Assembly (NCBI GenBank): GCA_903813345.2
Contig: CAIIXF020000012.1
Span: 22,024,184 to 22,088,183 of the forward strand
DNA length: 64,000 nucleotides
From: Owenia fusiformis
Lineage: Eukaryota > Annelida > Polychaeta > Sabellida > Oweniidae
Direction of reading: 5' to 3'
In this document: one piece after another, positions 22,901 to 56,200 of the stretch
Layout: each line of letters opens with the position of its first letter
Position numbering within the stretch: the stretch's first letter is position 1
The notes under the pieces: model-generated
The model's database searches: none
What the model was told of the DNA's origin: nothing
What the model saw: only the letters and a program-made list of their open reading frames with translations
Made by a program: the position numbers and the translations under genes

Positions 22901-25900
22901 GTTCAGCAAACTAGGGTCAAAAGAAGGACACCATTTCTCACAGGATCTACAGACATGTATATATACCATTAACATTAAAAAGGTGAAAATGTCTGGAATA
23001 AGGATTATGTAATATTACTGAAGTCTGCTACTTTCAAATTATTAGTTGATAATTATTATTAGAACTTTAATGAACAGGGGGCAATTTTGACATTTTTAAG
23101 TCCAAAGACACTCAAAAAGTGTATTTGAAAAGAAAGGTTATGTTGAAAATACTCGTATCTTACATACATGTATAGCACGTATAAGGTGGGAATAGAACTT
23201 TTGATTGACAACATTGAGATACATTTTTTACCTTTTATCAAAAAAATAAGCATAGAAAAACACTTGACTTATTTTTTTTAACAATCATACTTTAGGTGAC
23301 ATTTTCTAATTTATAATTTTACATACTGAATTAGTTTGACACTTACTGCATAAATATTTCAATGTCTCAAAAATGTAATTAATTACGTTAGGCAGGGAGA
23401 GGGTGAAAGTGGTGTTTAATTAGGTGACAGACATTGACTTTTAAGTTTCCAAGGATTTGTCTTCTGCAATTCCTGGTTTGACAGGCATGGCATGATCAAT
23501 AAATGTACTCAACAGATATGATGTATAAGAGAGGAATTCATAATGTTTTGTTTATAGCAGTAACATAGTCACAATGTATGCTGTGGGGTTGCACTTGTAG
23601 TCTGCACGCAAATCAACATTTTGACTCATTAATAGAAGAGAGGAGGGGGTTAAGACCTAACTAAATTAATTACATTTTTTCACATACATTGATCGAAGTG
23701 TTGACTAAGCCCCTAAGCTATTTATTTATAGGCACTTTCATTATACTTAAATAACTTAATAAATGGCATCTGAATCCAAGCCTGACTATGAAATCTGAGT
23801 CCCAGCCTGTCTATGGCATCTGAATCTCAGCCTCTCAATACAGGGCGTATCAAAAAAAACGCAACAAGTAGTTATCTCGTAAAATCACAAAACTAGTGAT
23901 GACTACATCAATTTCATTTAATGTACCATAAAGCCATGTCTCTCCTCTTTGCAATGATATGTCATTCATTCACATGTGGTAATGGTTGGGTGAGAAATCC
24001 TTCCATTTGCACAGTGGGTCAAAATCGGCTCTGCACCAAGTTTTAGATATTGAAAAAATCAGTGCAAGGGCTAAGTGCTAATGGAAGTTCCCCTGACTTG
24101 AATTGTTGTGACTTTTTCTTTTGGAGCTTTCTCAGGAGCATCTGTGCTCACAATTCCTCCACCAGATATTGCAAAACCTCGAGAAAGATTTGCCCATGGG
24201 CTGCTTTTCTTTGCTTTAACCCACACATGATTCAGGGCTGAACCATGCATGACGTGGACAGATGAGCGCATCTTTATGTGCAAGGAAGTGGTGGCAATTT
24301 GGAGGGGTATAGATGTTTTCTTGCAAGAGTATGAGTATGAACAACTTACTGTCTATGCCATACCTGTCACACCTTCTTCCAATAGCCCCTATGCCCCTTG
24401 TACTGACTTTTGCAATGTTTTAAACTTGGGGTCCGAGCTGAAATTTGCCCCACTTTGCAAAATTAATGATCATTCGGCCAGAGATGACTCCCTGTGAATG
24501 AATGATATTCCATTACAAAGAGGAGTAATTTGGTTTTTGGTACATTGAATTAAAAGGATGCAGTCAGCATTGGTTTTATGTTTTCGTGTAATATTGCATC
24601 AGGCTCCGTACACTGACTTTTGCAATGTTTATAACTTGGCCCGAAGCTAATTTTGGCCCACTTTGCAAATGGAATGATTACTCACCCAACCATGACCAAA
24701 TATCAATGAATGATATATCATTGTAAAGAGGAGACACATGGCTTTATGGTGCATTGAATGAAATCAATGCTGTTATCACTGGTTTTGTGCTTTTCCAAGA
24801 TAACAATCTGTTGCGTTTTTTTTATACGCACTGTAGTATCTGAATCCCAGACTGTCTGTGGCATCTGAATCCCAGACTGTCTATGGCATCTGAATCCCAG
24901 ACTGTCTATGGCATCTGAATCCCAGCCTGTCTATGGAATCTGAATCCCAGACTGTCTGTGGCATCTGAATCTCAGACTGTCTATGGCATCTGAATCCCAG
25001 ACTGTCTATGGCATCTGAATCCCAGCCTGTGTTTCTATTTTCCAGGTGGTTTAACAGCGGTGTTTCTATTTTCCAGGTGGTTTAACAGCTGTGTTTCTAT
25101 TTTCCAGGTGGTTTAACAGCAGTGTTTCTATTTTCCAGGTGGTTTAACAGCTGTGTTTCTATTTTCCAGGTGGTTTAACAGCTGTGTTTCTATTTTCCAG
25201 GTGGTTTAACAGCAGTGTTTCTATTTTCCAGGTGGTTTAACAGCTATGTTTCTATTTTCCGTGTAGTTCAACAACAGTGTTTCTATTTTCCAGGGGGTTT
25301 AACAGCTGTGATATGGACTGACTTTGCCCAGACTATTATCATGATTATTGGGGCCTTAGTTCTCATGGTACAAGGTACGCAATTTATAATCTTCATTTAA
25401 GTCTTGTCGTCAAAGTGCTTATTGTTTTTAAAGGGTAAGGTTTAATGTTGATGAAGGGTAATGTTTGGTCTTATTGTCAAGGTGTTTATCTGTAAACAAT
25501 GGGAATAAATGGTAAGGTTTAATGTTGATGAAGGGTAATGTTTGGTCTTATTGTCAAGGTGTTTTAATTTATCTGTAAACAATGGGAATAAATGGTAAGG
25601 TTTAATGTTGATGAAGGGTAATGTTTGGTCTTATTGTCAAGGTGTTTATCTGTAAACAATGGGAATAAATGGTAAGGTTTAATGTTGATGAAGGGTAATG
25701 TTTGGTCTTATTTTCAAGGTGTTTTAATTTATCTGTAAACAATGGGAATAAATGGTAAGGTTTAATGTTGATGAAGGGTAATGTTTGGTCTTATTGTCAG
25801 GTGTTTTAATTTATCTGTAAACAATGGGAATAAATGGTAAGGTTTAATGTTGATGAAGGGTAATGTTTGGTCTTATTGTCAAGGTGTTTATTTATCTGTA

Positions 25901-31900: not shown

Positions 31901-33655
31901 TGAGTTTGGGTATACAGGTAAACAGCATGAAATCATGTAAACCAAATATGAGTTGATGTTTACCCAGCATGAGTTTGGGTATACACGTAAACAGCATGAG
32001 ATCATGCAAACCAAATATGAGTAAATGTTTACCCAGCATGAGTTTGAGTATACACGTAAACAGAATGAGATCATGTAAACCAAATATGAGTTGATGTTTA
32101 CCCAGCATGAGTTTGGGTATACACGTAAACAGCATGAGATCATGCAAACCAAATATGAGTAAATGTTTACCCAGCATGAGTTTGAGTATACACGTAAACA
32201 GAATGAGATCATGTAAACCAAATATGAGTTGATGTTTACCCAGCATGAGTTTGGGTATACACGTAAACAGCATGATATCATGCAAACCCAATATGAGTTG
32301 ATGTTTGGGTTACACATGTACACAGCATGAGATCATGTAAATCCAAATGATTTCATGGGGTATAGGCAACATGATATTGTATACCCAACATGAGTTCATG
32401 TTTACTCAACATGAGATTATGTAAACCCAATATGAGTTCAAGTATACCAACATGAGTTTATGTATACTCAACATGAGATTATGTAAACCCATATGAGTTC
32501 AAGTATACCGACATGAGTTTATATATATACTCAACATGAGATCATGTAAACCCATATGAGTTCAAGTATACCAACATGAGTTTATGTACACTCAACATGA
32601 GATTATGTAAACCCAATATGAGTTCAAGTATACCAACATGAGTTTATATATACTCAACATGAGATCATGTAAACCCATATGAGTTCAAGTATACCAACAT
32701 GAGTTTATGTACACTCAACATGCATGAGATTATGTAAACCCAATATGAGTTCAAGTAAACCAACATGAGTTTATATATACTCAACATGAGATCATGTAAA
32801 CCCATATGAGTTATAGTACACCAACATGAGTTTATGTACACCCAACATGAGATTATGTAAACCCAATATGAGTTCAAGTATACCAACATGAGTTTATATA
32901 TACTCAACATGAGACTATGTAAACCCAATATGAGTTCAAGTATATATACCAACATGAGTTTATGTATACTCAACATGAGATTATGTAAACCCAATATGAG
33001 TTCAAGTATACAAACATGAGTTTATATATACTCAACATGAGATTATGTAAACCCAATATGAGTTCAAGTATACCAACATGAGTTTATGTACACTCAACAT
33101 GAGATTATGTAAACCCAATATGAGTTCAAGTATACAAACATGAGTTTATATATACTCAACATGAGATTATGTAAAACCATATGAGTTAAAGTATACCAAC
33201 ATGAGTTTATGTATATTCAACATGAGATTATGTAAACCCAATATGAGTTCGAGTATTAACAGAACTTAATAGAGATTGCTACATGTTATTGTCAAGACTG
33301 TATATCGCTATTTTAGCTTTTTGTCTACAAACTGTATTTCAACAGCTGGGTGAATATATCAGATTTTCAACATGATGCAGCACTTACTTGTCATTTTAAA
33401 ATGGAACTCATTTTATGAATCTTATTTTCAGTGAAACTGGAAGAAGTGGAAGAAGACCATTCAACGTTCTACAAACTTCTCTTTAAAGTCTGTGGAGGAA
33501 AACCAAAAGCTGACAACCTCACTGATGAAGAACGTTTCCATCAAGAAAAGCAACGTTGCTCACTGGAAGAGACAAAAAAATCTCGCATCATCACATCTAT
33601 TAATGCAATTCTCATCCTTGCTATATCTATATTTGTATGGGGTTTCTATGGTTAG
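16878..33655 (+). CDS. SLC5A9: SLC5-family Na+/sugar cotransporter, SLC5A9 (SGLT4)-like, 14 coding exons
   Basis: Plasma-membrane sodium/solute symporter (APC/LeuT fold, 14 membrane segments expected) importing a sugar with Na+. Joining 16878-16988, 17186-17254, 18633-18737, 19192-19251, 19567-19671, 22147-22264, 25294-25374, 26417-26649, 27068-27203, 27521-27779, 28072-28234, 29012-29227, 29675-29942 and 33432-33655 gives 715 aa with all phases consistent (family usually 600-720). Family marks: [18 protein letters not shown] (res. 66-83), [12 protein letters not shown] (288-299), [12 protein letters not shown] (388-399), [12 protein letters not shown] (452-463). Counterparts of human SGLT1 sugar ligands N78, H83, E102, W291 and Q457 are present (N69, H74, E93, W290, Q454), as are Na2-site A76, I79, S392 and S393 (A67, I70, S391, S392). 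SGLT1 T287 is Ala and D454 is His. [11 protein letters not shown] and PACGE recall SLC5A9, so substrate may be mannose, fructose or glucose (inference). Confidence 0.93.
17186..17254 (+). CDS. SLC5A9: SLC5 gene coding exon 2
   Basis: Residues 38-60, including GHFLAGKSM, the family's 'FLAGRSM' motif after the first helix. Acceptor TTTTAG, donor GTAAGT, phase 0 at both ends. Confidence 0.93.
17398..18216. repeat. Tandem repeat block flanked by a ~65-bp direct repeat (SLC5 intron 2)
   Basis: Degenerate units of about 120 bp, each with 'aaatctga', 'tttgacctt' and 'caaggtcaaa' blocks, fill about 17640-18050. A hairpin 'caccaccaaaaagtggtg' stands at the left. A direct repeat (17398-17463, again 18151-18216, with 'gaccctcttactaagcaaat') flanks the block, as if insertion or unequal exchange duplicated the flank. 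Confidence 0.6.
18319..18586. mobile_element. MITE 'GGCGTAGCCAGGGG' (SLC5 intron 2)
   Basis: Ends 'gcgtagccagggg' and 'ctggctacacccctg' are inverted, and ACTAG flanks both sides (18314-18318, 18587-18591) as a 5-bp target duplication. Non-autonomous DNA element. Confidence 0.65.
18633..18737 (+). CDS. SLC5A9: SLC5 gene coding exon 3
   Basis: Residues 61-95. It carries [18 protein letters not shown], the broken first helix of the transport core, with N69, H74 and E93 (SGLT1 N78, H83, E102) and Na2-site residues A67 and I70. Acceptor TTCTAG, donor GTAAGT, phase 0. Confidence 0.95.
19192..19251 (+). CDS. SLC5A9: SLC5 gene coding exon 4
   Basis: Residues 96-115, a membrane segment ([16 protein letters not shown]). 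Acceptor TTCCAG, donor GTAAGT, phase 0. Confidence 0.93.
19567..19671 (+). CDS. SLC5A9: SLC5 gene coding exon 5
   Basis: Residues 116-150. Contains [20 protein letters not shown], the 'MPEYLRKRFGG' signature region of SLC5 proteins. Acceptor TTGTAG, donor GTAAGT, phase 0. Confidence 0.95.
19862..20417 (-). mobile_element. PIF/Harbinger-type MITE, copy 1 (SLC5 intron 5)
   Basis: 556 bp. The termini read CTATCACACCAAACTAGTTC and its inverse, with a direct TAA on both sides (19859-19861, 20418-20420), the TWA target duplication typical of PIF/Harbinger elements. A second copy in the opposite orientation lies at 39273-39852. No transposase frame. Confidence 0.75.
20424..21102. mobile_element. 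Foldback MITE, ~150-bp arms (SLC5 intron 5)
   Basis: The left arm from CCATGTGCAGTATGGCAAG and the right arm ending in its inverse (to 21102) match over roughly 150 bases. It abuts the Harbinger-type MITE with only a few bases between. Non-autonomous, no coding frame. Confidence 0.7.
21438..22049. mobile_element. MITE 'GGGGGTCATTAACAGAACTT' (SLC5 intron 5)
   Basis: The left end and right end 'aagttctgttaatgacccccc' are inverted. The interior is rich in 'ttcgtaa/ttacgaa' motifs, which are self-complementary. It is the third consecutive element in this intron. Confidence 0.7.
22147..22264 (+). CDS. SLC5A9: SLC5 gene coding exon 6
   Basis: Residues 151-189 plus one base: [14 protein letters not shown] and the helix [12 protein letters not shown]. 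Acceptor TTCCAG, donor GTAAGA, phase 1. Confidence 0.94.
23760..25030. repeat. 25-bp minisatellite split by a mariner insertion (SLC5 intron 6)
   Basis: Units like 'ctgaatcccagactgtctatggcat' occupy 23760-23838 and resume at 24836-25030; the 993-bp mariner-type element sits between. The array runs directly into the 31-bp acceptor minisatellite at about 25029. Confidence 0.75.
23841..24833 (+). mobile_element. Degenerate mariner/Tc1-type transposon (SLC5 intron 6)
   Basis: 993 bp with inverted ends of about 55-60 bp (CAGGGCGTATCAAAAAAAAC at the left, the inverse of CAGTGCGTATAAAAAAAACG at the right) and a TA on each side. A plus-strand frame (24050-24241) contains [12 protein letters not shown], matching the SPDLNPxDFFLW motif around the third catalytic Asp of mariner transposases. 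The rest of the transposase is missing or broken, so it is a fossil. Confidence 0.75.
25029..25306 (+). repeat. 31-bp x 9 minisatellite carrying the exon 7 splice acceptor
   Basis: Nine units with exact 31-bp spacing. Each contains 'gtttctattttccag' followed by the exon 7 beginning 'gtggtttaacagc'. Potential exon starts fall at 25046, 25077, 25108, 25139, 25170, 25201 and 25232. Copy 8 (25263) has lost its AG, and 25294 is the start used in the gene model. Six of the first seven copies are identical or nearly so. Confidence 0.92.
25294..25374 (+). CDS. SLC5A9: SLC5 gene coding exon 7
   Basis: Residues 190-216: [20 protein letters not shown], the family's 'TGGLxAVxYTDxxQT' motif. The start is the last of nine tandem acceptor copies; it was chosen because it gives family length with no insertion. 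The acceptor at 25201 would add 31 in-frame residues without a stop. Donor GTACGC, phase 1. Confidence 0.9.
25400..25925. repeat. 77/83-bp minisatellite (SLC5 intron 7)
   Basis: About six units, alternately about 77 and 83 bp, of 'ggtaaggtttaatgttgatg' plus 'ggtcttattgtcaaggtg'. The longer form has an extra 'taattt'. The alternation suggests a higher-order dimer. Confidence 0.8.
25985..26114. mobile_element. Short MITE 'ACATTTGCTCCGATTCAT', copy 1 (SLC5 intron 7)
   Basis: Inverted ends (ACATTTGCTCCGATTCATTG and CAATGAATCAGAGCAAATGT). A related copy is at 37245-37391. Confidence 0.6.
26417..26649 (+). CDS. SLC5A9: SLC5 gene coding exon 8
   Basis: Residues 217-294: an extracellular loop with Cys and N-glycosylation-type NTT and NYT sites, then [13 protein letters not shown] and [11 protein letters not shown] with the sugar-stacking Tyr/Trp pair (Y289, W290). 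Acceptor TTTCAG, donor GTGAGT, phase 0 at the end. Confidence 0.95.
26650..26830. repeat. Short tandem repeat beside the exon 8 donor
   Basis: Two clear 51-bp units ('ttttaagagcttcatgaaat' plus 'atcttgtgagtgacaa') and one diverged unit. GTGAGT, the hexamer of the real donor at 26650, recurs at 26726, and a mutated form at 26777. It weakly resembles the other splice-border arrays. Confidence 0.55.
26967..27018 (+). pseudogene. Decayed copy of SLC5 exon 9 head
   Basis: After an AG (26965-26966) the frame reads [15 protein letters not shown], against [15 protein letters not shown] in the true exon 100 bases downstream. The same phase, codon register and several identical codons (VIVQ, L, AK, Y) show homology. 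Similarity stops after about 15 codons and there is no matching donor. It is a relic of a partial exon duplication, or much less likely an alternative exon. Confidence 0.65.
27068..27203 (+). CDS. SLC5A9: SLC5 gene coding exon 9
   Basis: Residues 295-339: [19 protein letters not shown], then a membrane helix with [14 protein letters not shown] ('MPGMISRIL' in vertebrates). Acceptor is ACAAAG with a weak pyrimidine tract. Donor GTAATT, phase 1. Confidence 0.92.
27521..27779 (+). CDS. SLC5A9: SLC5 gene coding exon 10
   Basis: Residues 340-425: a Cys-rich loop ([17 protein letters not shown]) matching the extracellular loop of SGLTs, [13 protein letters not shown], then [20 protein letters not shown] with the Na2-site serines S391 and S392. 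Acceptor ATGTAG, donor GTTAGT, phase 2. Confidence 0.95.
28072..28234 (+). CDS. SLC5A9: SLC5 gene coding exon 11
   Basis: Residues 426-480: a membrane helix, then [17 protein letters not shown] with Q454 (SGLT1 Q457, sugar ligand). Residue 451 is His where SGLT1 has D454. Acceptor TTCCAG, donor GTATCA, phase 0. Confidence 0.95.
28478..28842 (+). mobile_element. Mutator-type MITE, copy 1 (SLC5 intron 11)
   Basis: 365 bp, with inverted ends of about 35 bp beginning AGAGGGGG. It is flanked by a perfect 11-bp direct repeat TATGTTGATCC (28467-28477, 28843-28853). The 365-bp copy at 59764-60128 is closely similar. A target duplication of this length fits Mutator-like elements. No transposase. Confidence 0.8.
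29012..29227 (+). CDS. SLC5A9: SLC5 gene coding exon 12
   Basis: Residues 481-552: [24 protein letters not shown] in the loop, [13 protein letters not shown] and a further helix, ending [10 protein letters not shown] at the cytoplasmic linker. Acceptor TTTCAG, donor GTAAGT, phase 0. Confidence 0.95.
29675..29942 (+). CDS. SLC5A9: SLC5 gene coding exon 13
   Basis: Residues 553-641: the variable, Ser-rich cytoplasmic loop before the last helix, starting [11 protein letters not shown] (vertebrate 'LxRLTWWTR'). It is longer than in vertebrate SGLTs and explains most of the extra protein length. Acceptor TTTTAG, donor GTGAGT, phase 1. Confidence 0.88.
30068..32335. repeat. 69-bp minisatellite, ~33 units (SLC5 intron 13)
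   Basis: Units of about 69 bp built from 'catgagatcatg', 'aaaccaaatatgagttgatg', 'tttacccagcatgagtttgg' and 'gtatacacgtacacag'. Because 69 is a multiple of three, long open frames run through it, one of 501 codons on the minus strand. They are repeat artefacts, not genes. Confidence 0.92.
32336..33255. repeat. 62-bp minisatellite, ~15 units (SLC5 intron 13)
   Basis: Units of about 62 bp with 'ttcaagtataccaacatgag' and 'catgagattatgtaaaccca'. It shares the 'acatgag/tatgag' and 'atgtaaacc' words with the adjoining 69-bp array and is probably derived from it. Confidence 0.88.
33432..33655 (+). CDS. SLC5A9: SLC5 gene coding exon 14 (C-terminus)
   Basis: Residues 642-715: an acidic linker, [11 protein letters not shown] ('FCGL' region), [12 protein letters not shown], and the last membrane helix [17 protein letters not shown], then stop TAG (33653-33655). 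A short hydrophobic C-terminus ending in WG(F/Y) is typical of SLC5A9 and SLC5A11. Acceptor TTTCAG. Confidence 0.94.
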
Positions 33656-37987: not shown

Positions 37988-38977
37988 CTACACACATGTT
38001 ACAGCTAATGCAATACCACATGAAACTATACATAAAACAACAAAACCGCCAATCTTCAAAATCTTCAGCAATTTGCTTCTTTTTCGTTTGCATTTTTTAG
38101 CTTGTTTACGTTTTATATTGGCATCCAGAACCTCCACGTGATCAAGTGTTTTTGAAACGTGTCTTTCTATATTGTTCACACAACCTCCTTGTACCTCAAT
38201 GGTATCAGCCATGTTCACAAATAATTCATTCAGTTCAATTATTTTAGCTTCAAGCCCTAAGATTTCGTCACGTCGGCTATTTGATGCGAATTGCTGTTCT
38301 GTTGAAATTCCCGGGGTAAAAACCTGAGAATTCTGCTTCGAGAGTAAATTTGTTACTCGTGCATGTGTTATATTCTGCCCGGTTATGTCCAGTTGTCGAA
38401 CGATTTTTTCTCGGCATTGTTCGTAATATTTTACCTCAGTTATGTTTATTTTCTCGATTATATTCACTAATTCGATACTGAGGCAGTCGCATTGAGTTTC
38501 GCGCATGCGTTTCTCTGAGGAACTCTGGGACGGAGTCTGATCTGTTGCATTACAACCATCGTTTCTGATTACAGAAATGTGTAGCTTGATTCCGGAAATC
38601 ATCGTCATGGCGGCGGACTTTAACGAATTTGCTTTCAGCTGTTGCTGCGTCTGTGGCGTCGGAGATGAAACGATTTCGCTGTATATCTTACTCAGTTCTC
38701 CTTCCATTTCGGCAAGTTTTGCTAGATCTTTTCGAATTGCTGATACTTGAAAGAGGAGTTCTTCCATTGCATTCGAATCTTGCGGCTTTGCTGTTGTATC
38801 ATTGTGCCTAAAATCTTCGTTAGCCTCATTGCCCTTGGCGCACTGGGCCTTAGCCTTCCTAAATGAACAGGCATTAACAGATTTGATTCCTCTACGTAAA
38901 GATCTTTTAAAGCTGGAATCCCGGTTTAATTCTGCTGCCATCATTCTCTGAAACTCTTCGAGACGATCTCGGACCAT
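37988..38977 (-). CDS. Syntaxin-type Qa-SNARE, single exon
   Basis: Target-membrane SNARE that would pair with SNAP-25-type and VAMP proteins to drive vesicle fusion. 329 aa. The start MVRDRLEEF was chosen because neuronal-type syntaxins start with M-x-DR; the frame stays open another 66 codons upstream to an ATG at 39175. Layout: basic N-terminal extension (res. 20-60, not typical); Habc region about 70-200, with CREKIVRQLDITG (196-200) matching the conserved 'CxxxIxRQLEITG'; SNARE motif about 236-296 with the zero-layer Gln at 263 (IEVQGG); a basic stretch (KKCKRKRSK, 294-302); C-terminal membrane anchor 306-328 with three Cys. No intron interrupts it, whereas syntaxin 1-4 genes are multi-exon, so a retrogene origin is possible; vertebrate STX11 and STX19 also have one coding exon but lack such an anchor. 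Orthology within the STX1/2/3/4/11/19 group is unresolved. Confidence 0.85.
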   Translation of the reverse strand: MVRDRLEEFQRMMAAELNRDSSFKRSLRRGIKSVNACSFRKAKAQCAKGNEANEDFRHNDTTAKPQDSNAMEELLFQVSAIRKDLAKLAEMEGELSKIYSEIVSSPTPQTQQQLKANSLKSAAMTMISGIKLHISVIRNDGCNATDQTPSQSSSEKRMRETQCDCLSIELVNIIEKINITEVKYYEQCREKIVRQLDITGQNITHARVTNLLSKQNSQVFTPGISTEQQFASNSRRDEILGLEAKIIELNELFVNMADTIEVQGGCVNNIERHVSKTLDHVEVLDANIKRKQAKKCKRKRSKLLKILKIGGFVVLCIVSCGIALAVTCV

Positions 38978-39272
38978 TTTGGTAATCGTCTGATAAGAAT
39001 ATATTATTTCGCGCAGATCACGTTTGAGGGATACAGTCAACTGAACGACGATCAAGAAGTAAAGCCGTTTCGTTAATATTGTCTCTTTTATACAATTTAG
39101 TCTGCAAATGTGATAATTATTCTTAATAATATTTATGATGAAGAGCGCGTGACTCACAGGAAGTGTTCGTTTCATTTTCTTATATTTATTGCTCTTATAT
39201 CTATAATATTTTTACATACAAACAAATTATTTAATGCTATTCGTTATATACAGCTGTCTGTTTGTCAAGTTA

Positions 39273-41222: not shown

Positions 41223-44200
41223 CTGAAAAGCAAGACATAACGCAAGATAAAGGCTGTATTATTATGACCTCAGAAGAGTTGCATTTTGTCTACAGGGGTA
41301 TATAAGATGGAGGATGTCATAAAAAGTATTGAAAGGAACGTTTCATCATGCCTGGCTAATGGAAGGTTTCATCATGGCCAATGGAAGATTTCATCATGGC
41401 TAATGGAAGGTTTTAGGAAGAATTAACATCAACATGACTATCTGAATGTTTCATCATGAATAACAAATGGTGTGACTAAAGTGACAGAGTTTGTGTTTAA
41501 TGTACCTGAGCAACAAAAGGTGTGACTATCGCGCCAATACGGGCCATGCCATTACAGGATCCCAGACCGATTGCTCGCGACGTCGTTGGGTAAACTTCAG
41601 GTGTGTAGACATATGCTGCTTGGAATGCTCCGCTGATGAATGCTCGGGCAGCAAAAAGAAAAGATGTGAGGATTTCTCTGCAAATAATCATAGTCAATTG
41701 AATACTAAGTTCGGTAAAATAAAATATGTGAAGATGACACTGCAAGCAATTTAAATTGAATGGTAAGATCATTTTGAACAAAAGGCCTAAAAACTACTTA
41801 AGCGTCACTAAAATTGTTTAAAATAAAAGCAGAGGTATTCTCGAAATAAGGTAATGGCTACGAGCATTTCTGTGAACACTTCAATAACCGCATGACTGGC
41901 TTGGACTGCATTGCAGATTATACATATGTAAAACTTTAAATCTATTTTGATTTATTGCCATGGTTGGGCGAATAAAGCAGTTATGTTCAATAATCATATG
42001 GCTCGCCATCTGGACCAATGTATCGTCATACGTTTAACGCCGTAAAATCTACTTTTAACGCCGTCAAAAAATTATCTTGTTCGGCGTCAAAAATCATTTT
42101 GAACGGAGTCAAAAGGTGACAAAAGTACCGCCATTTCATTTTTAACGCCGTTCGAAAATGTTTTTGACATCGTTCAGACATTTTTGTGGCCGCCCGAAAT
42201 AATTTTTGACGGCCGCAAAAAGTCGTTGATGACGCCGTTCAAAGATTTTACGGCGTTAAAAGTAAATTTTACGGCGTTAAAGGTATGACGTTACATTGGT
42301 CCAGATGACCAGCCATACACGTGTATTACGTCACTGATGATGCTACGTATGGTGTCGAAGAGGATTTCGTCAAATAACTGGTTTCAACGGTCGGGTTGAT
42401 ATTTTTCTTCTTTCCGTTGTAAAGGTACAATTATATAGGAAAATAATATTTTCATGAATTCGGATGGTAGTCTACATACTATATTTTTGCTAGTTTCCAT
42501 TGCATGACTTTTTCGTGATATTTCTTGAGAGAAAGGGTCAATCATATGCACCATATATTCAATCAAAAATGATGTCTTCAGTAAATCCCATTTCGATTGT
42601 GCGCTTGTTTTTGGATGTGTTCAAATAATGGATTGTATTCCATACTGTGCTTATAATTCTCTGACTGGAAAACAGCTATGGTCATTTGACTTTGTTTCTT
42701 CATAATATAATTAATCATTGGTTTAAATATCGGATCTCATTCCCTTACCATAACCCTAACCCTGACCCTGACGGGCCCTTGGTATACCTTCATCTGACTT
42801 TATTTTCTTACTTTATTCTTTTTATTTCGCCTCAGCCATTGAGCTGCATATGTACAGAGTGGGCCAAAAAATGTAGCCCAAATAAATGTTAGTAATGGCC
42901 TGGTCATTCAGCGTGGGTTTAAGGTTATACTTGGAACAATTAAATCTTGTTTAATGTTCTTTCATTCTGGGGCTCTTATCGGGTGAGTTTGGCATTTGGC
43001 GCACGTTTTATAAGATGCCCATAAAATCTGTATGAAAGAACATGTGCCAGATATGACTTAAAATCTAGGCTGAATGACCGAGTTATTAACATCTGTTTGG
43101 GCTACCTTTTTCTGGCTCACCCTGTATGTTGCAATAATATTCATGATGTGATGACAATCATTCACCAAGAAGTGAGCTTTAAGGTCTCCTCACCTTGAGA
43201 CGCAGATGTTGACTAGAAAGACGAACAGCGAGAAGAGCAGAAAATCAAGCGTCATTGTTTTCTTTCTCCCTACACACTCTATAATAACTACGGTGAATAA
43301 TAAACCTAAAAGGTAAAATGAAAAATATTTTATTCGTGAATAAATCAAACACTTTATATTTGCATTTGTTTCATTTTTAGAGTAGTTTTTGATGCGATTA
43401 TCGGATTTAGCGTTGGTATTCCCCCTCCGCAATAGCGTTGTTATAAATATTGAATCAAATATAAAGAAACGTGGGGATTTTAAATCAAAAATGCTCACTT
43501 GACTAAGCTTGAATCCCAAATAGCTTCCTGTCTGTAATGTCTATAATTAATTTTCATATTAACCTGGTAGCTCTGCCGATGTGGTCCACAACAGATCAGT
43601 ATAGTCCTTTGTTGTCAACTGTTTGCATTCTAAACTACACGAAGCCTCGGGGAGACCATCACCCACTTATGAAATAAAGAAGTTCTTCACATAACAGTTG
43701 CATGTATGGCATAGTTTAAGTAAGTTGGAAATAGCATCATATGAGATACAAGGGAGGTTCATCATCATCATAATACACGATTCAATCATTTACTGATTAC
43801 TACATCGCGGGTAGCATAAGCTAAACGTGTTAAGAGAACGTTCATGATACTCCAATCAATTTTCGAAATGTTTCTTTTGAGGTTCGATATCTAGTTTAAA
43901 TTACCTGTACATGATTCTCCAGATTGGAACAGTTCTGTTGTCATCAGTACAACACCATAGTAAGAGAATGCATTGGCCAACCTTTGAATGGCCGAAAATA
44001 TGGAATGAACAACAGATACGTTAAACAGAAATCAATACGATACCATAATAATAGTAAAAGTAAGAGAATGCATTGCCCAATCTTAGAATGAACGAAAATA
44101 TGGAATGAGCAAAAGATACGCTACACAGAAATCAGAACAATACTATAATAATAGTAAAAGTAAGAGAATGCATTGACCAACCTTTGAATGAAACAAAAAA

Positions 44201-47200
44201 TGGAGTGAGCAAAAAATATACGCTACAAAGAAATCAGTACAATACTATAATAAGAGAAGGCATTGGACAACCTTTGAATGAACAAAAATATGGAATCAGC
44301 AAAAGATACGCTACACAGAAATCTGCCATGTTTGTGCTGAGAATGTTGTGCAGATTCTGCATACAACTCGCGAAATATGGAAGAGAGAAAAATTCTATCT
44401 TCGTGGTTCCGACATTTTAACTAGTTTGAAGAAGGAAATACCAGTGATTGTCATATTGGTTCTTCTGTTGACAGTGTCAAGAACAAGAACACAAACCTCA
44501 TTTAAAATAAGAACATTTGACACTTACCATATCAGCCATAGTAATACTGTTGTAGTTCGAAGTACAGGGGTAAACAAATCGGCAATCCTTCCCCTTTTAA
44601 CCTCCTGGAAATAAATGTAACCACTAAAAAGGTAATACAATCACCTCCCTTGGATTCTCATGGACATATATGTTAACACTTAACTAGCAATACTATCCTT
44701 GGATTCTCATGGACCATCATTCCAAAAATCATCATTCCATAAAATATACATACAAACATGCAATCATAAAGACAAAGTAAAATAAAAAAGAATTACGACC
44801 CCGGCATAGACTTTTTAAAAGTGCTGAAAATACATGATGATCAGATTACATACTAACTTTTATATTTGGTTCGACCAGCTTGCCCAGTGGCATTGGCTTT
44901 CCATTTTCTTTGGCGATTCGTTCCAATGTTTTTAGCGCACTCTCTGGGTTGCCCCTGGCAACATCAAATCTTGCACTTTCTGGAAGCCACTGAAAGTATC
45001 GTAATGTAATCGTAAAACAAGTCACTAAAAGCACAATGACACATTGTTTCAATCCTAGAACAGATTACTAAAATATATTGGCATGTTAATTTAATGGAAG
45101 AATTTGTCACCGAACGTACCATTAACATGTTGATTTCATTGAGGAACCTGTCAATGAAAGTAGCTTTAACATGTTGATTTATCGTAGAACAAGCAACTGA
45201 AAATACTACTGACATGTTGCTTCAATCGTAGAACAAGTCACTAAAAGTACAATGACAAGTTGATTTAATCGGCAAACTAGTCACTAAAAGTATATTTTAT
45301 AGGTTGATTTGGGAGAGGAACAGATCACTGAAAGTACCATTGATCGATATGTTGATTTCATCGAGAAACTAATCCATGAAAGTACCATTGACATGTTGAT
45401 ATAATCATAAAACAAAACGTTATCATAGGACAGGTAATTGAAAGTACATTAGACATGTTGATTTATTAAAAAACAAGCAATTGAAAATACTACTGACACG
45501 CTGCTTCAATCATAGAGCAAGTCACTGGCGACTGAAAATACCACTGACATGTTGATTTCATTGTAGAACAAATCACCACAATAGTACCACTGACATCTAT
45601 TGAATGAATATACAAGGAATAAGATGCAAACACATTTGCAATTTAAGGTATACTTGCCCAAATCATCTTCAAATAAATTAGTGAATGAGGTATGGCGCGT
45701 GGATGGATAATTGAATGGGGTACGACCATAGTGTACAAGATGTAATTATAACGTGTATTTAATTATAACGAAAAAAAATTAAAAAATTAAATAACGAATT
45801 GTCTTTGTCGTTATGTTTTATTCTCGGTATATATTCTGACTTAGCTGGATTAGCTGGATTAATTAATGGGGTATGGGTCGTGGATGGATTAATGCATGGG
45901 GCGTGATCATCGATGAATTAGTGAATGAGGTATGGATCTTGGATGGATTAGTGAATGGGGCGTGATCATAGCTGGATTAATAAATGGGGTATGATCATAG
46001 CTGGGTTAGTAGATGGATGGGGCATGATCATAGGTGGATTCGTGAATGAGGTATGGATCGTGGGTGGATAACTGAATGGGGTATGATCATAGCTGGATTA
46101 GTAAATGGGGCATGATCATAGGTGGATTCGTGAATGAGGTATGGATCGTGGGTGGATAAATGAATGGGGTATGATCATAGCTGGATTAGTAAATGGGGCA
46201 TGATTATAGGTGGATTGGTGAATGAGTTATGGATCGTGGATGGATTAATGAATGGGGCATGATCTTAGCTTGATAAGTGGATGAGGTATGGATCATAGAT
46301 GGAGGAGTGAATGGGGCATGGGTCGTGGATGGATTAATGAATGGGGCGTGATCATAGCTGGATTAGTGGATGAGGTATGGATTATAGCTGGGTTAGTTGA
46401 TATGTACAGATCATGGATGGATTAGTGAATGGGACCTGATCATAGCTATATTAGTGAATAGGTATGAATCCCGGATGGATTAACAAATTGGACATGCTCA
46501 TGTATGAGCTATTTGGAGATGAGGTGTTAATGCTCGTGGATGAATTAATGAATGCGTTATGACTATAGATGAATCAATGAATGCTGTATTATCATGGATT
46601 TATGAATGAGGTATGTATCGTGGATTGATTAGTGAAAGAGGTACATGGACAGCATGGATGGATTAACGAATGAGGTATGTATCGTGGATTGATTAGTGAA
46701 AGAGGTACATGGACAGCATGGATGGATTAATGAATAAAGTATGTACCGTGGATTGATTAGTGAAAGAGGTACACGGACAGCATGGATGGATTAATGAATG
46801 AGGTATGTATCGTGGATTGATTAGTGAAAGAGGTACATGGACAGCATGGATGGATTAATGAATGAGGTATGTACCGTGGATTGATTAGTGAAAGAGGTAC
46901 ATGGACAGCATGCATGGATTGATGAATGAGGTATGTATCGTGGATTGATTAGTGAAAGAGGTACATGGATAGCATGGATTGATTAATGAATGAGGTGTGT
47001 ATCGTGGATTGATTAGTGAAAGAGGTACATGGATAGCATGGATGGATTAATGAATGAGGTATGTATCGTGGATTGATTAGTGAAAGAGGTACATGGATAG
47101 CATGGATGGATTAATGAATGAGGTATGTATCGTGGATTGATTGGTGAAAGAGGTGCATGGGCAGCAAGGATGGATTTATGAATGAGGTATGGTCATAGTT

Positions 47201-50200
47201 TGTTTATGAATGAGGTATGGATCACTGATGGAATAATTTACTTACCACACAACAGACTGTGAATATAGACAGCGGTATTGAGGATAGACCTAGCAACCAG
47301 CGCCAACCAAGATGAGGCATGACGAGTAATGCCAGAACAACTTCAAAGCAAGCTCCCAATGCCCAGAATATCTGAAAAGTGCATAGCAATTGGTTATATT
47401 TGCTCATAAGCAGGCTTGATAATAAACCGTAGTTTGCTTTATTCTTAGTCAAACCAGAAGCCTTGAACTTGTCACTGGTGGAATTCGTTAAACTGGTCAA
47501 AATGGAGCAGCCTTGGAGGAACGATCTTCCATGATATCACGAGAAAAGGTAAGAATATTTATGAAATTTTGGACCAAACGTGTCTCGGCATCATATGCAT
47601 CATAAGAAAATTCAAGCGTTTGAGAACAAATACAATGTAGTTCTCAAAACGCCAAAATAATACTTTTGTAACGTAAACGGAGCATTTAACATGTTCATTC
47701 AATAACAGGGAGGAATTGTTTTGATCATTCGTCTAGTAACTGATCAACAGAAATGTTGATCAACAAGTTATCTAATGTCAGCCGTCTACAGGTTGTCCAA
47801 AAACGATTGTGTTCACGTAGTCAGAGTGAATTGGATAGTCCTATTTATAGTTCGAACTACACGACACTCACGCACTGTCATACACTGACAAATATACCTG
47901 TACGTACTACATGTATATGGTTCCTCATACATGTTAACGTTAAAGACAGAGCCTCCACTATAAAAGCAGCTTGACCAGTAAAAATGGAGTCATTCTCAAT
48001 TTGAAAATATTAGGAATATGAAAAATTCAAATCAAGGGGAATAATTTTGATTTTCTGTTAGTTGTAGCCAACAGATCACCATAAAAATTGTCACAGATGT
48101 TTATGAATACATTCTCCTTGAAATCTTTTAATCAATTATTGCAAATATGCATTACTTTTTTAGAAATCCTTATTTGAAAATTTGTAATTTTTTAAATTGA
48201 GAGGAGTGGCCTAATTCAAATTTCAACCAATGACGTGAGGTATTCAGGGTCACATGATGTAAAGTTTGTTTGTAAATCTTTCAAAAGCACATGTTATAGG
48301 TACCATTTCAATAAAACATAATTCATGCTACTGTTTATCATAAGAAATGTGTCATTTACTTACCTACATATGGTATATTAAAGATATGACTCCAAAGACA
48401 TTATATAATTACAAAATCCAATGCATTTTCTTGATGCAAATGACTTCAAGGTAACTGTATACTGTTCAAAAGACTTGAGATTACTACAGTGTACTTGGCC
48501 ATGGTTCACTTGGCTAACATTGATATAAGAAAGTCATCTATTGCCTTTTCTAGAGTTTGATGATTGTACAAAAGTTTCTTTTTGCTCAAACTTGCTTTTA
48601 CGAGTACTTTCTGCAAGTCAGTGTGAAGAAAGTTCTGTCTTTAATTTATAGTTTCATATTCTGTTAGTTAAATCTTGAACATGACAGCACTCTGATTTTC
48701 TGGTGATTGAGACATGTTCACTGTATTATGACTTTGTAAGAATGAGGTCTACTGAACAACACAAGCACAAATTCACTATTTTGGATGTTCCATTTGTCCA
48801 AAAACCTGTTTACAAAGGGGTTTTACCTTAGAGAAAATGTATAAGAACGGGTCCCATATGGAACACCCCTAGGAAAGGGACAATTCATTATCTCTTACCA
48901 TTTGCATATGGTTACATAAATATAAAAGATCATCAATTTCAAATTTGGAGACACCCTGGTACAACGTGGTAATAGAGGTTGAAAAGTGCAGAATTATTGC
49001 ATAAATGAAGGGCATGACTTAGTGCAACCCTTTGTGGTAGGTAGGGACCAGATGAAAGAACCAATACAATTTTTCAATTTGTACAGAATTTCCCATACAT
49101 TTTAAGCTTTTGTGCTGGTATCTACATTTATTTCTTGAAATGACCCCAAAAGCAATTGCTTTATGATGTTAAATTTAGATGTTACGGATTATAAGAACAT
49201 GAATCAATTTACCTAAAGGAAACCTACATTTACTTTACATAAATTAACTGGAAAATCTATGTAGCAAGCATAACCAAAATGTATGAAGATTCTTGGTTAA
49301 AAAGATGTTGGTCAATTGCTATCATTCAGTTCATGTTCACTGACTGTAAAGTATGAAATTATAACATGTGCTTTTGTTATGTTTATCAACATAAATATTA
49401 TCCCTTAAAGCATCACTATTAGCTGATTGGATAAGGATTTGATTGACAAGCCTAATGGATGTGACTTGCCTTATAAGGTCTAATGAGCAACCAGGTGGTT
49501 CAGAAAGTCTGTCTTTAAGCAATAGAGTATTTGCTAATTAGACGTTTATAAATACATGACAGCGCGTGTGTTGGTTGGAAAACTTAGGGCCAGAATACAT
49601 GAAAACATATTCATTGTATGGCAGAAGAAGGTAAGAATCACTTACTAATTTCTTGATCTATCAAATATCTTAATTTGGATTCATATAAAACACCATTGGA
49701 TTATTGCTAAATGACCTTGTTAATATGTGGATTGTAATTTAACATTCAAATTGTGATCCTTATAAGAGTAATTAAAATGATCTTTCAAATGGTTTCCTTA
49801 ACACCATGTCAATGGGAATTTAACCCGACCGTTTTCAGAAAACTTGAAAATTGAATGAAGGTGGATAAATTCAGAAACCAAAGTTATTTGATAAAAAATT
49901 TGATATAAAGAATTAAAATATGCCCTCAAATAAAAGAAAATATTTAAATGGTTCAAATGCAGATCTCCTTATATCTCATTTAATCGAGAATTCAGCGAGA
50001 TTTCAAAAATATAATTATAAAGCAAACCCTCTATTGTAAGAATATATGGGACACCCTGTGCGGTTTCATAATAACTACTTCCGTCTACATATACCCGAAT
50101 ACTTCAAAACAAAATAATAAGACAACAAATGGACACTGGTTTAAGATGAAGTGATAGCTTATAATGTCCTTGAGATACTTATAACGATAATAATATACAT

Positions 50201-53200
50201 CACAAGCATATAGTTAAAATAACAAATGAGTTGTTAATTGCAAGTACAAGCTACCATTGTCTGTGATAAGTAAGGGATAATAGGACATATTATCATATCA
50301 CCAAAGTCGTGATTCCGGTCGTTATACCACTTATTTACTTTGTCTCTGTTAATGATTAGCAACAATAAACTAAACAAAGAATTGAGTCATATGCATGTAC
50401 AGGATAAATTAATTTTATTATAGCTTCCAACTTACTTTAATCTGAAAAATACATTTAAATCAATCATATATATTTGTCCAATCATTACTATACCCCTTGT
50501 AACATATCGTTTACCTTAACCCTAATGTGGATGAAGTATTTTATAACACTAAAGGATAGGGGGGTCCAAAATTTGATATATTTTGTAAATTACGAGGGGT
50601 GATCCAAAAGTCTTGGACGCCCTGCTCTAATTTTGTTGGTTTTTGATAAAATTACTTCAAACTTTCCAATAATAAAGACCAACAACCTAACTACTTTATG
50701 TATTAATTTCATGGTAAAATTATATATTTTATGTAGTTTTCTAGATAGTTATTAATATAGTGACCCTGCCACCCGGAACGGTATTCGCACATGGCAACTT
50801 TCAGCCTTAAATGTTGCCACTATTTGACTTGTTTTGCAAGTCTTGACTACTATCTATCCTTAAATTTTGAATGTTAAACCACGTTAGTTTACTTCCTTTG
50901 TTACTAGACAACCAATTAATTGTGTTTTAATCATAATGTCACATATGGCAATTGCCGTATATGTCAAGTTCTAAGAAAATGACATCAGATAATCAACCCT
51001 CATTCTGGTGTCAGTTTTGCTCCAAGATGGCTGCTGAAATGCAGAACATGAAAGAAATCAAAGTGGAACAAAGAATACTACAATATATTTTCACTATTAT
51101 TGACATTGAGCAAATTACCATATGCACGATACAGTCTAGATATGGCTCCGTGTGATTTTCTTCCTTTTCTCCAAGTTGAAAGGAGGGCTGAAAGAAAATG
51201 TTTTTTACTCATTGGATGAGGTTTGGATTGGCACTCCAGCAGCATTTGTATCACATAGGCAATGGCCGTTTCATAAATGTCTTTCATTCATTGGTAAAGC
51301 GGTATGAAAAATGTGTTCAAATTCGTGGAAAATATGTTGAAAAGTAGGTCTTAATATGTGAAGATGATGATGGCAGATGACACTCAGACTGAAAATCGGA
51401 AATTCTCTCATATCATGACTGGTGTTAGGTTGTGCACCTGCACCTAAAGTATGTGCCATATTATAACAGTTGTGCCGTGATTTGCTATATTTGAATACCG
51501 TTCCGGGTAGCAGGGACCCGGTATCAAAAAATATTTAGAAAAGTAGCTAAAATATATTAGTTTCTGTTGAAACTTATACACAAAGTTGTTAAGATGTTGA
51601 TCTTTATTATCTGAAAGTTTCATGTAATTATATTAGAAAATAGCAAAGTTAGAGCGGGGCGTCCAAGACTTTTGGATCACCCCTCGTACATACATATTTT
51701 TAATACTTTTCACTTACCTCAATCATCACAATGCACTTGACTCAATCATTACTTTTCACTTACCTCAATCATCACAATGCACTTGACTTAATCATTACTT
51801 TTCACTTACCTCAATCATCACAATGCACTTGACTTAATCATTACTTTTCACTTACCTCAATCATCACAATGCACTTGACTCAATCATTACTTTTCACTTA
51901 CCTCAATCATCACAATGCACTTGACTCAATCATTACTTTTCACTTACCTCAATCATCTCAATGCACTTGACTCAATCATTACTTTTCACTTACCTCAATC
52001 ATCTCAATGCACTTGACTCAATTATTACTTTTCACTTACCTCAATCATCTCAATGCACTTGACTCAATTATTACTTTTCACTTACCTCAATCATCTCAAT
52101 GCACTTGACTCAATTATTACTTTTCACTTACCTCAATCATCTCAATGCACTTGACTCAATCATTACTTTTCACTTACATTAATCATCACAATCCACTTGA
52201 CTCAATCATTACTTTTCACTTACCTCAATCATCACAATGCACTTGACTTAATCATTACCTTTCACTTACCTCAATCATCACAATACACTTGACTTAATCA
52301 TTACTTTTCACTTACCTCAATCATAACAATGCACTTGACTCAATCATTACCTTTCACTTACCTCAATCATAACAATGCACTTGACTTAATCATTACTTTT
52401 CACTTACCTCAATCATAACAATGTACTTGACTTAATCATTACTTTTCACTTACCTCAATCATCACAATGCACTTGACTCAATTATTACTTTTCACTTACC
52501 TCAATCATCACAATGCACTTGACTCAATCATTACTTTTCACTTACCTCAATCATCACAATGCACTTGACTTAATCATTACTTTTCACTTACATCAATCAT
52601 CACAATGCACTTGACTTAATCATAACTTTTCACTTACCTCAATCATCACAATGCACTTGACTTAATCATTACTTTTCACTTACCTCAATCATCACAATGC
52701 ACTTGAATCAATCATTACTTTTCACTTACCTCAATCATCACAATGCACTTGACTTAATCATTACTTTTCACTTACCTCAATCATCACAATGCACTTGACT
52801 CAATCATTACCTTTCACTTACCTCAATCATCACAATACACTTGACTCAATCATTACCTTTCACTTACCTCAATCATCACAATGCACTTGACTTAATCATA
52901 ACTTTTCACTTACCTCAATCATCACAATGCACTTGACGTAATCATTACTTTTCACTTACCTCAATCATCACAATGCACTTGACGTAATCATTACTTTTCA
53001 CTTACCTCAATCATCACAATGCACTTGACGTAATCATTACTTTTCACTTACCTCAATCATCACAATGCACTTGACTTAATCATTACTTTTCACTTACCTC
53101 AATCATCACAATGCACTTGACTTAATCATTACTTTTCACTTACCTCAACCATCACAATGCACTTGACTTAATTATTACTTTTCACTTACCTCAATCATCA

Positions 53201-56200
53201 CAATGCACTTGACTTAATCATTACTTTTCACTTACCTCAATCATAACAATGCATTTTGCTCTAGATGATTGGGGAAGGAATTCCGAGTATAACACTATTC
53301 TGAAAATAGGAAACGAGAACAATATCTTGAGTCATGATCTTTGAGCGGAGAGAAAGGTCCGTCTATGGCTTACTGTTATATCTTACAAAAAACTACAATC
53401 CAATTTGAATGTTATAAGAGACGACAAAAAATAAATTTCAACTAACACTGGTGATTCACTCGATTACGCTGGAACCGTTTCGGTAACAAAATGTCGGAAC
53501 GTCGAAGGGACGATTTTTCTTTTTTCCTTATTTCGTACGTTGTAGGCAGAATTCCCTCGAATTTTTTTTATCACAAACGTGTATCAGTATCATATGTTTA
53601 AGAAAATGCACACATTTGCGAACAAATAGTCCAGAAGACAACGGAATCGTCGATTTAATTCCTCACTTAAGCTACATAAACGGTATTTCGAAAAACAGTT
53701 AAGATCTGCACTTTTAACCCCTACCGTTCATGTAACTTAAGTGAGGCAATAAATCGACGATATCGATTCTGTTGTCTTCTGAGCTATTTTTTCGCTCACA
53801 TGTACATTTTCTAAAATATATGGTATGGATACACGTTTGTGAGAAGAAATGTCGCGGGGATTCTGCCTACGACGCCTGAATTAAAGAAAGAGAAAAATCG
53901 TACCTTCGACGTTTGCGATTTGTCATACGTATAGGTTGGCGTTTCGATTTTATATGCAAGCTCAAACTCCCTATTATTCAAATAACCCATTTGATACATT
54001 ATGTTTTGAATACAGGCATTGCAGTTGAATACAGATATTGTAGTTTTTAGCAGATAATTTATGTATTCAAGTATTATGTCAAGTGACCTAGAACCAGAAA
54101 TAATTGCTGGGAATCATAGATTCACCTACGCTTTAATATGAATGAATAATTTAATATATATATAATGTTGACTAGACTTAAGCTTACGATTGAGGAGCGC
54201 CTCCTATACCAAAGCCAACCAAACAACGAAGTATAAGAAGCCATGGGTAGGTTGGGGAAAAACTGCTCAGAAAACCGAAGTAAAATGTGAATAAGGAACA
54301 GAGTATCAGCTCCTGAAATATACACATGTTACTAAGAATGCATGTCTAATACGATAATGTGTACTAATATAACTGATGTACGGTGATTTATATTTATATT
54401 TTATGCACACCGGAATAGCCTGACAACGGTAAAGTCAGATACCGTTGTCACAAATGGCGAACATAACCGTCGTTCAATTAGATTTTCTTGAACTGTATGT
54501 TTAATAGAGCACCTAGACCCTAATTCCTTTGGAACAACAATCAACCAAAGTGTCTTAATACTCATTATACAGTTAATAATGTTCTACCATCGCGAAATAA
54601 AGTCTTTAACCGATCAAAATGAGATACGGGACAACGGACACTGAACCATATGCCGTGGTATTTTTAAATTACTCAAATTCAGATTCCGTTGTCATTGACG
54701 ATATCGAAGACGCTATATTGTGGCGATTCACGACCCAATTTGATCGAAATTGGGATTTCATATGAAACATCATCACAAGATATTCACAGAATTAGCGACG
54801 ATAAAATCCCATGAAATGAGGACCAAGTGATTAAACAGTGGAAGCGACGGTTATGTCCGCAATTTGTGACAACGGTATCTGACTTTACCGTTGTCAGGCT
54901 ATTCGGGTGTGTTATGGTAATGTATAGATACTTATACAATGTATGGTAAAGTAAGGTAGTGTATACTAACAGTGTACGGCGTTATATACTTATAGTTTAT
55001 CGCAATGTAGTTATGGTAATGTATACGTATAGTTTATGGTAGCGTGTGTGACAAAAAAGTGAATAGTGATTGTCTACCGTACTTACTGCTTTTCTGCCAT
55101 ATTGGTCACACACCTTCCCCCAAACACCAGAGCTAAACATCATTCCACAGAACACTACCTGAAATTGAAGAATTATTGAGAATCGAAAAATTAAAAAAGC
55201 TTTATTTCACGCTTAGGTGATTGCAGTTTATAATTATTGCTAATTGATCCTTATTGGAGGCCCTGTGTAGTTGACTTAGAGTACCACACCGAACAAAACG
55301 TTTCATCAAATCATCCATCACTTTGCGCATTACCTGGACCAGCCAGTAACTTAAATAGCATTGTCTTAATCGTTGAATTATATTTCTTCTAAGAACGGCC
55401 ATTTTGAATTCAGCAGCCACCACAAAAATTCCTTGTGCAGGGTAGTGTATCCCCATCTATTGCCATATGAAAATACCCAATAAAGTTGGACCAAACCCAA
55501 TAAATGGTATTTAAGTTATCACAAATTACGCATTTTTGTGAAAAATGGCAGTCATTTTACATTCAACCGCCATCTTGAATGTTTCTTCTTTAGCAGTGAA
55601 ATGCAACAGTATATAAAAAATCTGTCAACTGGTATCCGAGTCATCAAAGATTAATTAAGCACAGGCTGATTTCATGAAAAACATCTTTCTTTTCTAGAAA
55701 CTTACTGTGGTGATAAGTGCTTGTTGCCATGACGAGAGGCCCCAGGCACAGTGGAGAGCAGGTGAAAGAATACTCAGTATCATCATTTCCATCGAGTCTG
55801 CCATCTATTAAACATTGAAAATATCAATTATCATTTATTTAAACAGATTTATAATGCCCCAGCCATTCGCTACGGCGACCATATGGTCTAATACATTTAC
55901 GACCAATAGCAATTCTACAGCTGCCGTAGAATTTCTACGTTGACACTCTTTAGTAGTCACACTTGTTACCCATTTGGCAGATGTTTGACGTATTTTCAAT
56001 TAGTGGAGACAGAAACGTTATGCTTGCCGTGTGCTCTTTAAAATGTCTCGTCCTAAGGCGTCCGTAACATTTTAACAAATACCAAATCTGACGCCCCGAG
56101 GCGTTGGCCGTAATGCGACCAATCTAACGCTGCACAGCATAGCTGCGGCTTGTCCAATTGCTGGGATACAGGTGCGGCGAGAGTAGATTTTTATGCTAAA

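What the first reader, a model, noticed from the sequence alone, without database searches (positions are those of the whole stretch)
51711..53299. 34-unit minisatellite whose unit is the splice donor of SVOP exon 7
Each 46-bp unit contains about 20 bases of the exon end plus the consensus donor GAG|GTAAGT, and spacing is exactly 46 bp across 33 periods. One real 5' splice site is thus followed by 33 decoys. Any distal donor would add four codons and then a stop, so U1 choice of the exon-proximal site decides between full protein and a truncated or decayed mRNA. Unit homogeneity suggests recent expansion or homogenisation.
Basis: partly seen in the sequence, partly recalled or inferred. Interest (0 to 1): 0.88.

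Follow-up and report, generated by a model that had tools for sequence, protein, structure and literature searches.

The report
Splice-donor minisatellite after an SVOP-like exon
The end of one exon and its splice signal has been copied 33 times in a row into the next intron, which looks striking but is one of several such exon-edge repeats found in this repeat-rich animal genome, a kind known before from lancelets.

Summary
On the minus strand a 64-nt exon of an SVOP-like transporter gene (53236-53299) ends in GAG|GTAAGT. Thirty-three more donors follow at exact 46-bp steps (first intron bases 53189 to 51717); 31 of 33 match the real donor from -3 to +6. The exon's last 21 nt differ from the unit at two sites, both synonymous (KCIVMIE). 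Each later donor tried (1, 2, 5, 33) adds VSEK and a stop. No acceptor in the array scores like a typical real one, so it probably can only lengthen this exon.

It is not unique. Three of 41 splice sites in the window's two modelled genes carry such arrays, as do 2 of 84 in eight SLC5 paralogue regions; 9 of 19 donor-word arrays sampled elsewhere clearly start at an exon end.

These match the 'mirages' of amphioxus genes, suggested not to disturb splicing (PMC3087553, PMC3902484). A bantam-like hairpin makes this genome probably a protostome. Splice sites lie in arrays less often than intron points: chance hits in a repeat-rich genome, tolerated. Donor use was not testable.

The parts
53236..53299 (-). 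64-nt coding exon ([21 protein letters not shown]) whose 3' end and donor are copied in the array
   Evidence: in-frame 12-exon model; sequence
53226..53238 (-). authentic donor GAG|GTAAGTGAAA (last exon base 53236)
51704..53253 (-). 46-bp tandem array: exon copy plus 33 intronic copies, 31 of 33 keeping GAG|GTAAGT
47372..53235 (-). host intron, 5,864 nt, the longest of the 11 in the model; array at its 5' end
47246..47371 (-). next exon ([12 protein letters not shown]...)
43959..44323 (-). 100-bp array spanning the acceptor of exon H (43905-43981): 3 further copies of acceptor and exon start at 22/30 or better
25027..25310 (+). 31-bp array spanning the acceptor of exon s3 (25294-25374) of the SLC5/SSF gene: 8 further copies
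45008..45292 (-). about 44-bp degenerate array just upstream of exon F; possible old acceptor array, inconclusive
   Evidence: local score 36 against 32 for the best of 19 other acceptors

Best explanation
A minisatellite spanning an exon-intron boundary (a 'mirage'-type array). A short stretch holding the exon end, its donor and the first bases of the intron was tandemly duplicated; the extra copies lie downstream of the first donor, so they are intronic and free to expand and be homogenised by local slippage or unequal exchange. Exon and unit now differ only at two synonymous sites over the clearly shared 21 nt, as expected if the exonic copy stays under coding constraint. Shown: anatomy, register, reading frames of the donors tried, neighbour similarity, lack of a strong acceptor in the array, recurrence at other exon edges. 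Inferred: the spliceosome mostly uses the first, exon-proximal donor because that one is defined with the upstream acceptor across the 64-nt exon; use of later donors, if any, gives VSEK-stop mRNAs expected to be degraded (stop 829 nt or more upstream of the last modelled junction for the donors tried). The array is therefore mainly a tolerated by-product, not a regulatory device.
For: Exact 46-bp register and 31 of 33 intact decoys. Exon and unit differ at two synonymous sites in 21 nt. Adjacent units differ by 1.61 against 2.31 in shuffles. Same architecture at 3 of 41 window boundaries and 2 multi-copy cases in 84 paralogue boundaries. Of 19 donor-word arrays fetched, 9 begin at the end of an exon-like open frame whose end is in the unit; homology supports 4 of the 9: NCS-1 2e-10, Rab27A 1.5e-8, I-set 1.7e-6, Muted 5.9e-15. 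Splice sites are in arrays no more often than intron points. Of 164 AGs in the array the best scores 1.4 against a median of 10.1 for 20 real acceptors; none reaches the second-weakest real one, 3.65. Passages of PMC3087553 and PMC3902484 describe the same structure in amphioxus with regular splicing.
Against: No RNA evidence; donor use is inferred. The decoys are as strong as the real site (above 90% of 51 other donors of this genome) and folding does not clearly hide them (0.35-0.74 unpaired against 0.74), so why the first should win is not explained by the core sequence. Published human work on competing donors shows both outcomes (SRSF1 favours intron-proximal, hnRNP A1 intron-distal sites: PMC5585400, passages). 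The 13 decoys nearest the exon are all intact, so there is no trace of selection against them. Of the 19 sampled arrays four have only a short or uncertain exon link and six have none. 22 of 164 AGs in the array score above the weakest placed acceptor, -0.15 (exon I).
Confidence: 0.72

Rival explanations
1. Regulated poison switch: the 33 decoys compete for U1, and array length tunes how much mRNA carries the VSEK stop and is destroyed, adjusting transporter level.
For: Later donors are identical to the real one in 31 of 33 units and strong; the four tried give the same early stop. Human IFI6 is said to use downstream repeat units as donors (PMC4526556, passage; original paper not held).
Against: The same arrays occur at unrelated genes and at acceptors, in some with units that add no in-frame stop (L048; L058). 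Invariance of GTAAGT in all units is not significant given overall variation (P 0.12). Amphioxus mirages are said not to disturb splicing.
Confidence: 0.15
2. Recursive splicing: each AG|GTAAGT in the array is a zero-length exon used to remove the 5.9-kb intron stepwise.
For: Most units have AG directly before GTAAGT, and the intron is the longest of the 11 modelled. Three of the 33 intronic units score 1.4 as acceptors, above the weakest of 20 placed acceptors, -0.15.
Against: The other 30 of 33 score -2.9 or less, below every placed acceptor; none of the 164 AGs in the array reaches the second-weakest real one (3.65; median 10.1).
Confidence: 0.02
3. Assembly artefact: fewer units exist and the assembler expanded them.
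For: Tandem arrays can be mis-assembled; PMC3087553 reports one amphioxus array aberrantly assembled in the genome draft.
Against: 19 distinct sequences among 32 full intronic units, with spatially clustered variants; similar arrays at other loci. No reads were seen.
Confidence: 0.03
4. U1 landing pad: the donors recruit U1 snRNP at the start of a long intron to suppress premature polyadenylation (telescripting, recalled).
For: Strong donors in the longest modelled intron.
Against: Acceptor-side arrays of the same kind would not be expected to do this; nothing specific was tested.
Confidence: 0.04

Closest known systems
'Mirages' of amphioxus (Adh3, globins BflGb6 and BflGb9, TnC, PGBD5)
   Same: Tandem minisatellite-like duplications spanning exon-intron boundaries, at 5' and 3' boundaries, many units keeping AG/GT signals, concerted evolution within the cluster (PMC3087553 passages; PMC3902484 passage).
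   Different: Host here has a bantam-like hairpin, so is probably a protostome; 33 intronic copies here against 6 and 3 units in the two BflGb6 haplotypes; regular splicing and length instability were reported there but could not be tested here.
Human 6-16 / G1P3 / IFI6 minisatellite with multiple splice donor sites (Turri et al. 1995)
   Same: A minisatellite supplying extra donors; PMC4526556 states that two downstream repeat units are used as donors.
   Different: Original paper not held; its 12-bp unit is recalled. The unit here is 46 bp and the decoys tried lead to a stop.
Intron gain by tandem duplication of AGGT-containing or boundary sequence
   Same: Tandem duplication across a splice boundary as raw material for new splice sites (PMC4974935, abstract; model in PMC3087553).
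   Different: I see no new intron or exon here; the array has no strong acceptor.

Membership tests
Mirage (boundary-spanning minisatellite) | Tandem units include both exon end and intron start | tested here: met
   21 to 25 exonic nt plus the donor and following intron bases per 46-bp unit
Mirage (boundary-spanning minisatellite) | Units keep AG/GT splice signals | tested here: met
   31 of 33 decoys keep GAG|GTAAGT
Mirage (boundary-spanning minisatellite) | Both 5' and 3' boundaries can be affected | tested here: met
   donor of exon D, acceptors of exon H and of SLC5 s3; two paralogue acceptors
Mirage (boundary-spanning minisatellite) | Concerted evolution within the cluster | tested here: met
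   neighbours more alike than shuffles, 5e-5 (1 of 20,000 shuffles)
Mirage (boundary-spanning minisatellite) | Length instability between haplotypes or somatically | not testable with these tools
   one assembly only
Mirage (boundary-spanning minisatellite) | Regular splicing not disturbed | not testable with these tools
   no RNA data
Mirage (boundary-spanning minisatellite) | Host is a cephalochordate (described range, not a structural feature) | tested here: inconclusive
   Points away from it: bantam model match at E 9.3e-8, 53.2 bits, under the Rfam cut-off of 61, with an exact 23-nt match to a recalled mature sequence; in a direct scan the same strand fits mir-81 of the same clan best, also under its cut-off. 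Protostome restriction of bantam is recalled
IFI6-type donor minisatellite | Downstream repeat donors used in mRNA | not testable with these tools
   no RNA data
Recursive splice site | Acceptor directly followed by donor | tested here: not met
   30 of 33 intronic units score below every one of 20 placed acceptors; the other three (1.4) exceed only the weakest
Intron gain by tandem duplication | New acceptor or new exon formed by the copy | tested here: not met
   no AG in the array reaches the second-weakest real acceptor; no RNA data

The most novel reading that the evidence does not exclude
Splice-boundary minisatellites form a genome-wide class in a protostome, at both donors and acceptors, with one run of 33 extra donors of which 31 equal the authentic site. 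Splicing here would then have to follow a positional rule (commit to the first donor after the exon's acceptor) strong enough to ignore dozens of equally strong identical sites, making this genome a natural saturation experiment on 5' splice-site competition.
Probability: 0.35. Interest if true: 0.72.

Novelty: new member of a known kind. Interest (0 to 1): 0.46.

Why it matters
It extends exon-boundary minisatellites, described in amphioxus genes, to a probable protostome, with more copies than the amphioxus globin cases I could read about. It offers a ready-made test of how the spliceosome chooses among identical donors at fixed 46-nt steps. It also warns gene annotators: boundary-spanning arrays invite false exon ends.

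Tried and rejected
Genome-wide excess of donor words in arrays: rejected. AGGTAAGT triplets with period 20-50 bp gave 143+95 matches against 19,109 single words; the reversed control word gave 191+161 against 33,902, about 1.2 and 1.0 per hundred words.

Preferential birth of arrays at exon edges: not supported. Boundaries with three or more copies are 3 of 41 in the window and 2 of 84 in the paralogue regions. Intron points with three or more copies are 21.1% of 933 in the window (12.9% of 832 without the three boundary-spanning arrays) and 6.2% of 3,475 points in the paralogue regions (exons included). Window alone P 0.03, paralogues alone P 0.18, pooled odds ratio 0.40, P 0.04; the points are not independent. 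Of the 84 paralogue boundaries 4 had hits; I dropped from the count two with a single copy: C12a aa144 (site shifted 24 nt, probably mispredicted) and C2b aa66 (site shifted 12 nt). Several other predicted sites are shifted too. In the window, exon G's acceptor and s5's donor reached 21/30, just under the threshold of 22.

RNA folding as a mask for decoys: nothing peculiar to donor 0. Selection on decoys: GTAAGT invariant in all units, P 0.12; +1 to +10 invariant, P 0.02, window chosen after seeing the data. Recursive splicing and pseudo-exons: not supported. Array after exon E (45851-47232): begins 14 nt after the exon and does not include the donor. Array before exon F: inconclusive.

Host naming: COX1 search empty (it rang in 8 of 14 controls); GFP search empty (it rang in no control, so it shows nothing). 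Hits on contigs C1-C12 (eight lengths seen, 35-62 Mb), 498 Mb in all and 35% GC in 41 fetched loci would fit the annelid Owenia fusiformis, whose 12 chromosomes are mentioned in PMC9539403 (passages); a guess only. A paper search on competing identical donors found nothing; one search gave the DOK7 paper. No protein structure prediction was made.

Full report
CHECK. The array is real. TRF finds period 46, 33.7 copies, 51704-53253. On the minus strand GTAAGTGAAA occurs 34 times at exact 46-bp steps; the first is the donor of a 64-nt exon (53236-53299), and 33 follow in the intron. GAG|GTAAGT is kept in 32 of 34, exon copy included. The exon's last 21 nt and the unit differ at -10 and -19 only, both synonymous (KCIVMIE in each); beyond that the resemblance fades.

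GENE. Twelve exons join in one open frame of 424 codons, MFS_1 at 1.3e-32. The first PDB relatives are SLC22 members; SV2B follows; the SVOP label is recalled. The exon is the fourth that I could place, so 'exon 7' is unverified. In the model, the later donors tried (1, 2, 5 and 33) each give VSEK and a stop, 829 nt or more before the last modelled junction.

ARRAY EVOLUTION. The 32 full intronic units have 19 distinct sequences and differ by 5.0% on average. Neighbours are more alike (1.61 against 2.31 differences; 1 of 20,000 shuffles as low). This is the mark of local duplication or homogenisation. Invariance of GTAAGT across units is not significant (P 0.12).

NOT UNIQUE: WINDOW. A 30-mer across each splice boundary was compared with 3 kb on each side. 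Three of 41 boundaries had further copies: this donor (33), the acceptor of exon H (3), and the acceptor of exon s3 in the SLC5/SSF gene on the other strand (8). The opposite strand gave 0 of 41, and 816 cross-gene comparisons peaked at 20/30 against a threshold of 22; two further boundaries reached 21.

NOT UNIQUE: GENOME. In eight SLC5 paralogue regions on five contigs (C2, C6, C8, C10, C12), 4 of 84 predicted boundaries had copies; two were multi-copy (12 and 9), both acceptors, one at the intron position homologous to s3 but with a different, 46-bp unit; two single-copy hits are doubtful. From the places that one search listed (the first part of 238 matches, contigs C2 to C7) I made out 17 arrays by eye and fetched 16. 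From the forward donor words that one search listed (the first part of 9,797, all in the first 2.7 Mb of C1) I fetched the three arrays that I saw. Of these 19, nine begin exactly at the end of an exon-like frame whose end is repeated in the unit (L046, L048, L051, L052, L055, L056, L057, L058, L060), four have a short or uncertain link (L045, L049, L050, L054), six have none that I saw (L042, L043, L044, L047, L053, L059). Four of the nine exons have homology support: NCS-1 (PDB), Rab27A (PDB), I-set (Pfam), Muted (Pfam). A tetraspanin hit for L058 is weak (E 0.058, under the cut-off). Of eight array-side exon peptides sent to Pfam, six gave nothing (L045, L046, L048, L052, L055, L056), and nothing was found in the PDB for L056 or L058.

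AGAINST A SPECIAL ROLE. Splice sites are in arrays less often than intron points: 3 of 41 against 21.1% of 933 (12.9% of 832 if the three boundary arrays are left out), and 2 of 84 against 6.2% of 3,475; pooled odds ratio 0.40, P 0.04, paralogues alone P 0.18, points not independent; exon interiors with three or more copies 0 of 209. Donor words fall in tandem triplets about as often as the reversed control word (238 matches for 19,109 words against 352 for 33,902). So the genome is rich in minisatellites and some hit exon edges.

MECHANISM. GAGGTAAGT outscores 90% of 51 other donors of this genome, so the decoys are not weak, and folding does not single out donor 0. Of 164 AGs in the array none scores above 1.4 (20 placed acceptors: weakest -0.15, next 3.65, median 10.1); 22 exceed the weakest. 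Of the 33 positions directly before the decoy donors 30 score -2.9 or less as acceptors. This speaks against pseudo-exons and recursive splicing, so later donors probably can only lengthen exon D. I infer that exon definition favours the first donor. Human studies of competing donors show that either site can win depending on SRSF1 or hnRNP A1 (PMC5585400, passages), so this needs RNA data.

KNOWN KIND. [quoted passage not shown] PMC3902484, passage). The original Adh paper was not found under the DOI that I tried from memory. A human case, IFI6, is described in a passage of PMC4526556; the original is not held. The searches listed no protostome case that I recognised; I saw listings and the passages named only. 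An earthworm paper with minisatellites in a first intron (PMC12783039, passages) does not describe boundary-spanning units in what I saw. The host here has a bantam-like hairpin: E 9.3e-8 but under Rfam's cut-off, with an exact match to a recalled 23-nt mature sequence; a direct scan ranks mir-81 of the same clan first on that strand. Bantam's restriction to protostomes is recalled, so the host is probably, not surely, a protostome.

VERDICT. Observation confirmed; a large example of a known kind in a probable new host lineage; function beyond tolerance unproven.

Noticed in passing
25027-25310 and L039:6087-6712: Acceptor arrays at the homologous intron position of two SLC5 paralogues (window s3 and C8) with different units (31 and 46 bp), which suggests independent origins at one site.
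   Followed up: partly
L058 from about position 1048 (G000:C1:442746 onward): 54-bp donor array after a tetraspanin-like exon; the two units read are in frame and without a stop, so later donors would add 18 residues per unit to a probable membrane helix.
   Followed up: partly
L046, L048, L051, L052, L055, L056, L057, L058, L060: In the clear exon-end donor arrays most of the unit is exonic (31-46 of 38-54 nt), with a short intronic part; possible bias in how I recognised them.
   Followed up: partly
L049 and L050 (G000:C6:14303382, 14336195; also 14337766): Near-identical exon-like stretches in duplicated loci carry the same 37-bp donor array, apparently inherited by duplication.
   Followed up: no
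45851-47232: 29/64-bp array beginning 14 nt after the donor-side end of exon E, not including the donor.
   Followed up: partly
37988-39211, minus strand: Uninterrupted 407-aa frame with a syntaxin domain (PF00804, 1.3e-17); perhaps a retrocopy.
   Followed up: no
30068-33258: Long 69-bp and 62-bp arrays (about 33 and 14 copies) just downstream of the last SLC5 exon placed.
   Followed up: no
15009-16427, minus strand: 472-aa reverse-transcriptase-like frame (label by eye).
   Followed up: no
about 41440-41510, minus strand: Exon K's end (TAGTCACACC.TTTGTT) seems to recur once just downstream of its donor; seen by eye.
   Followed up: no
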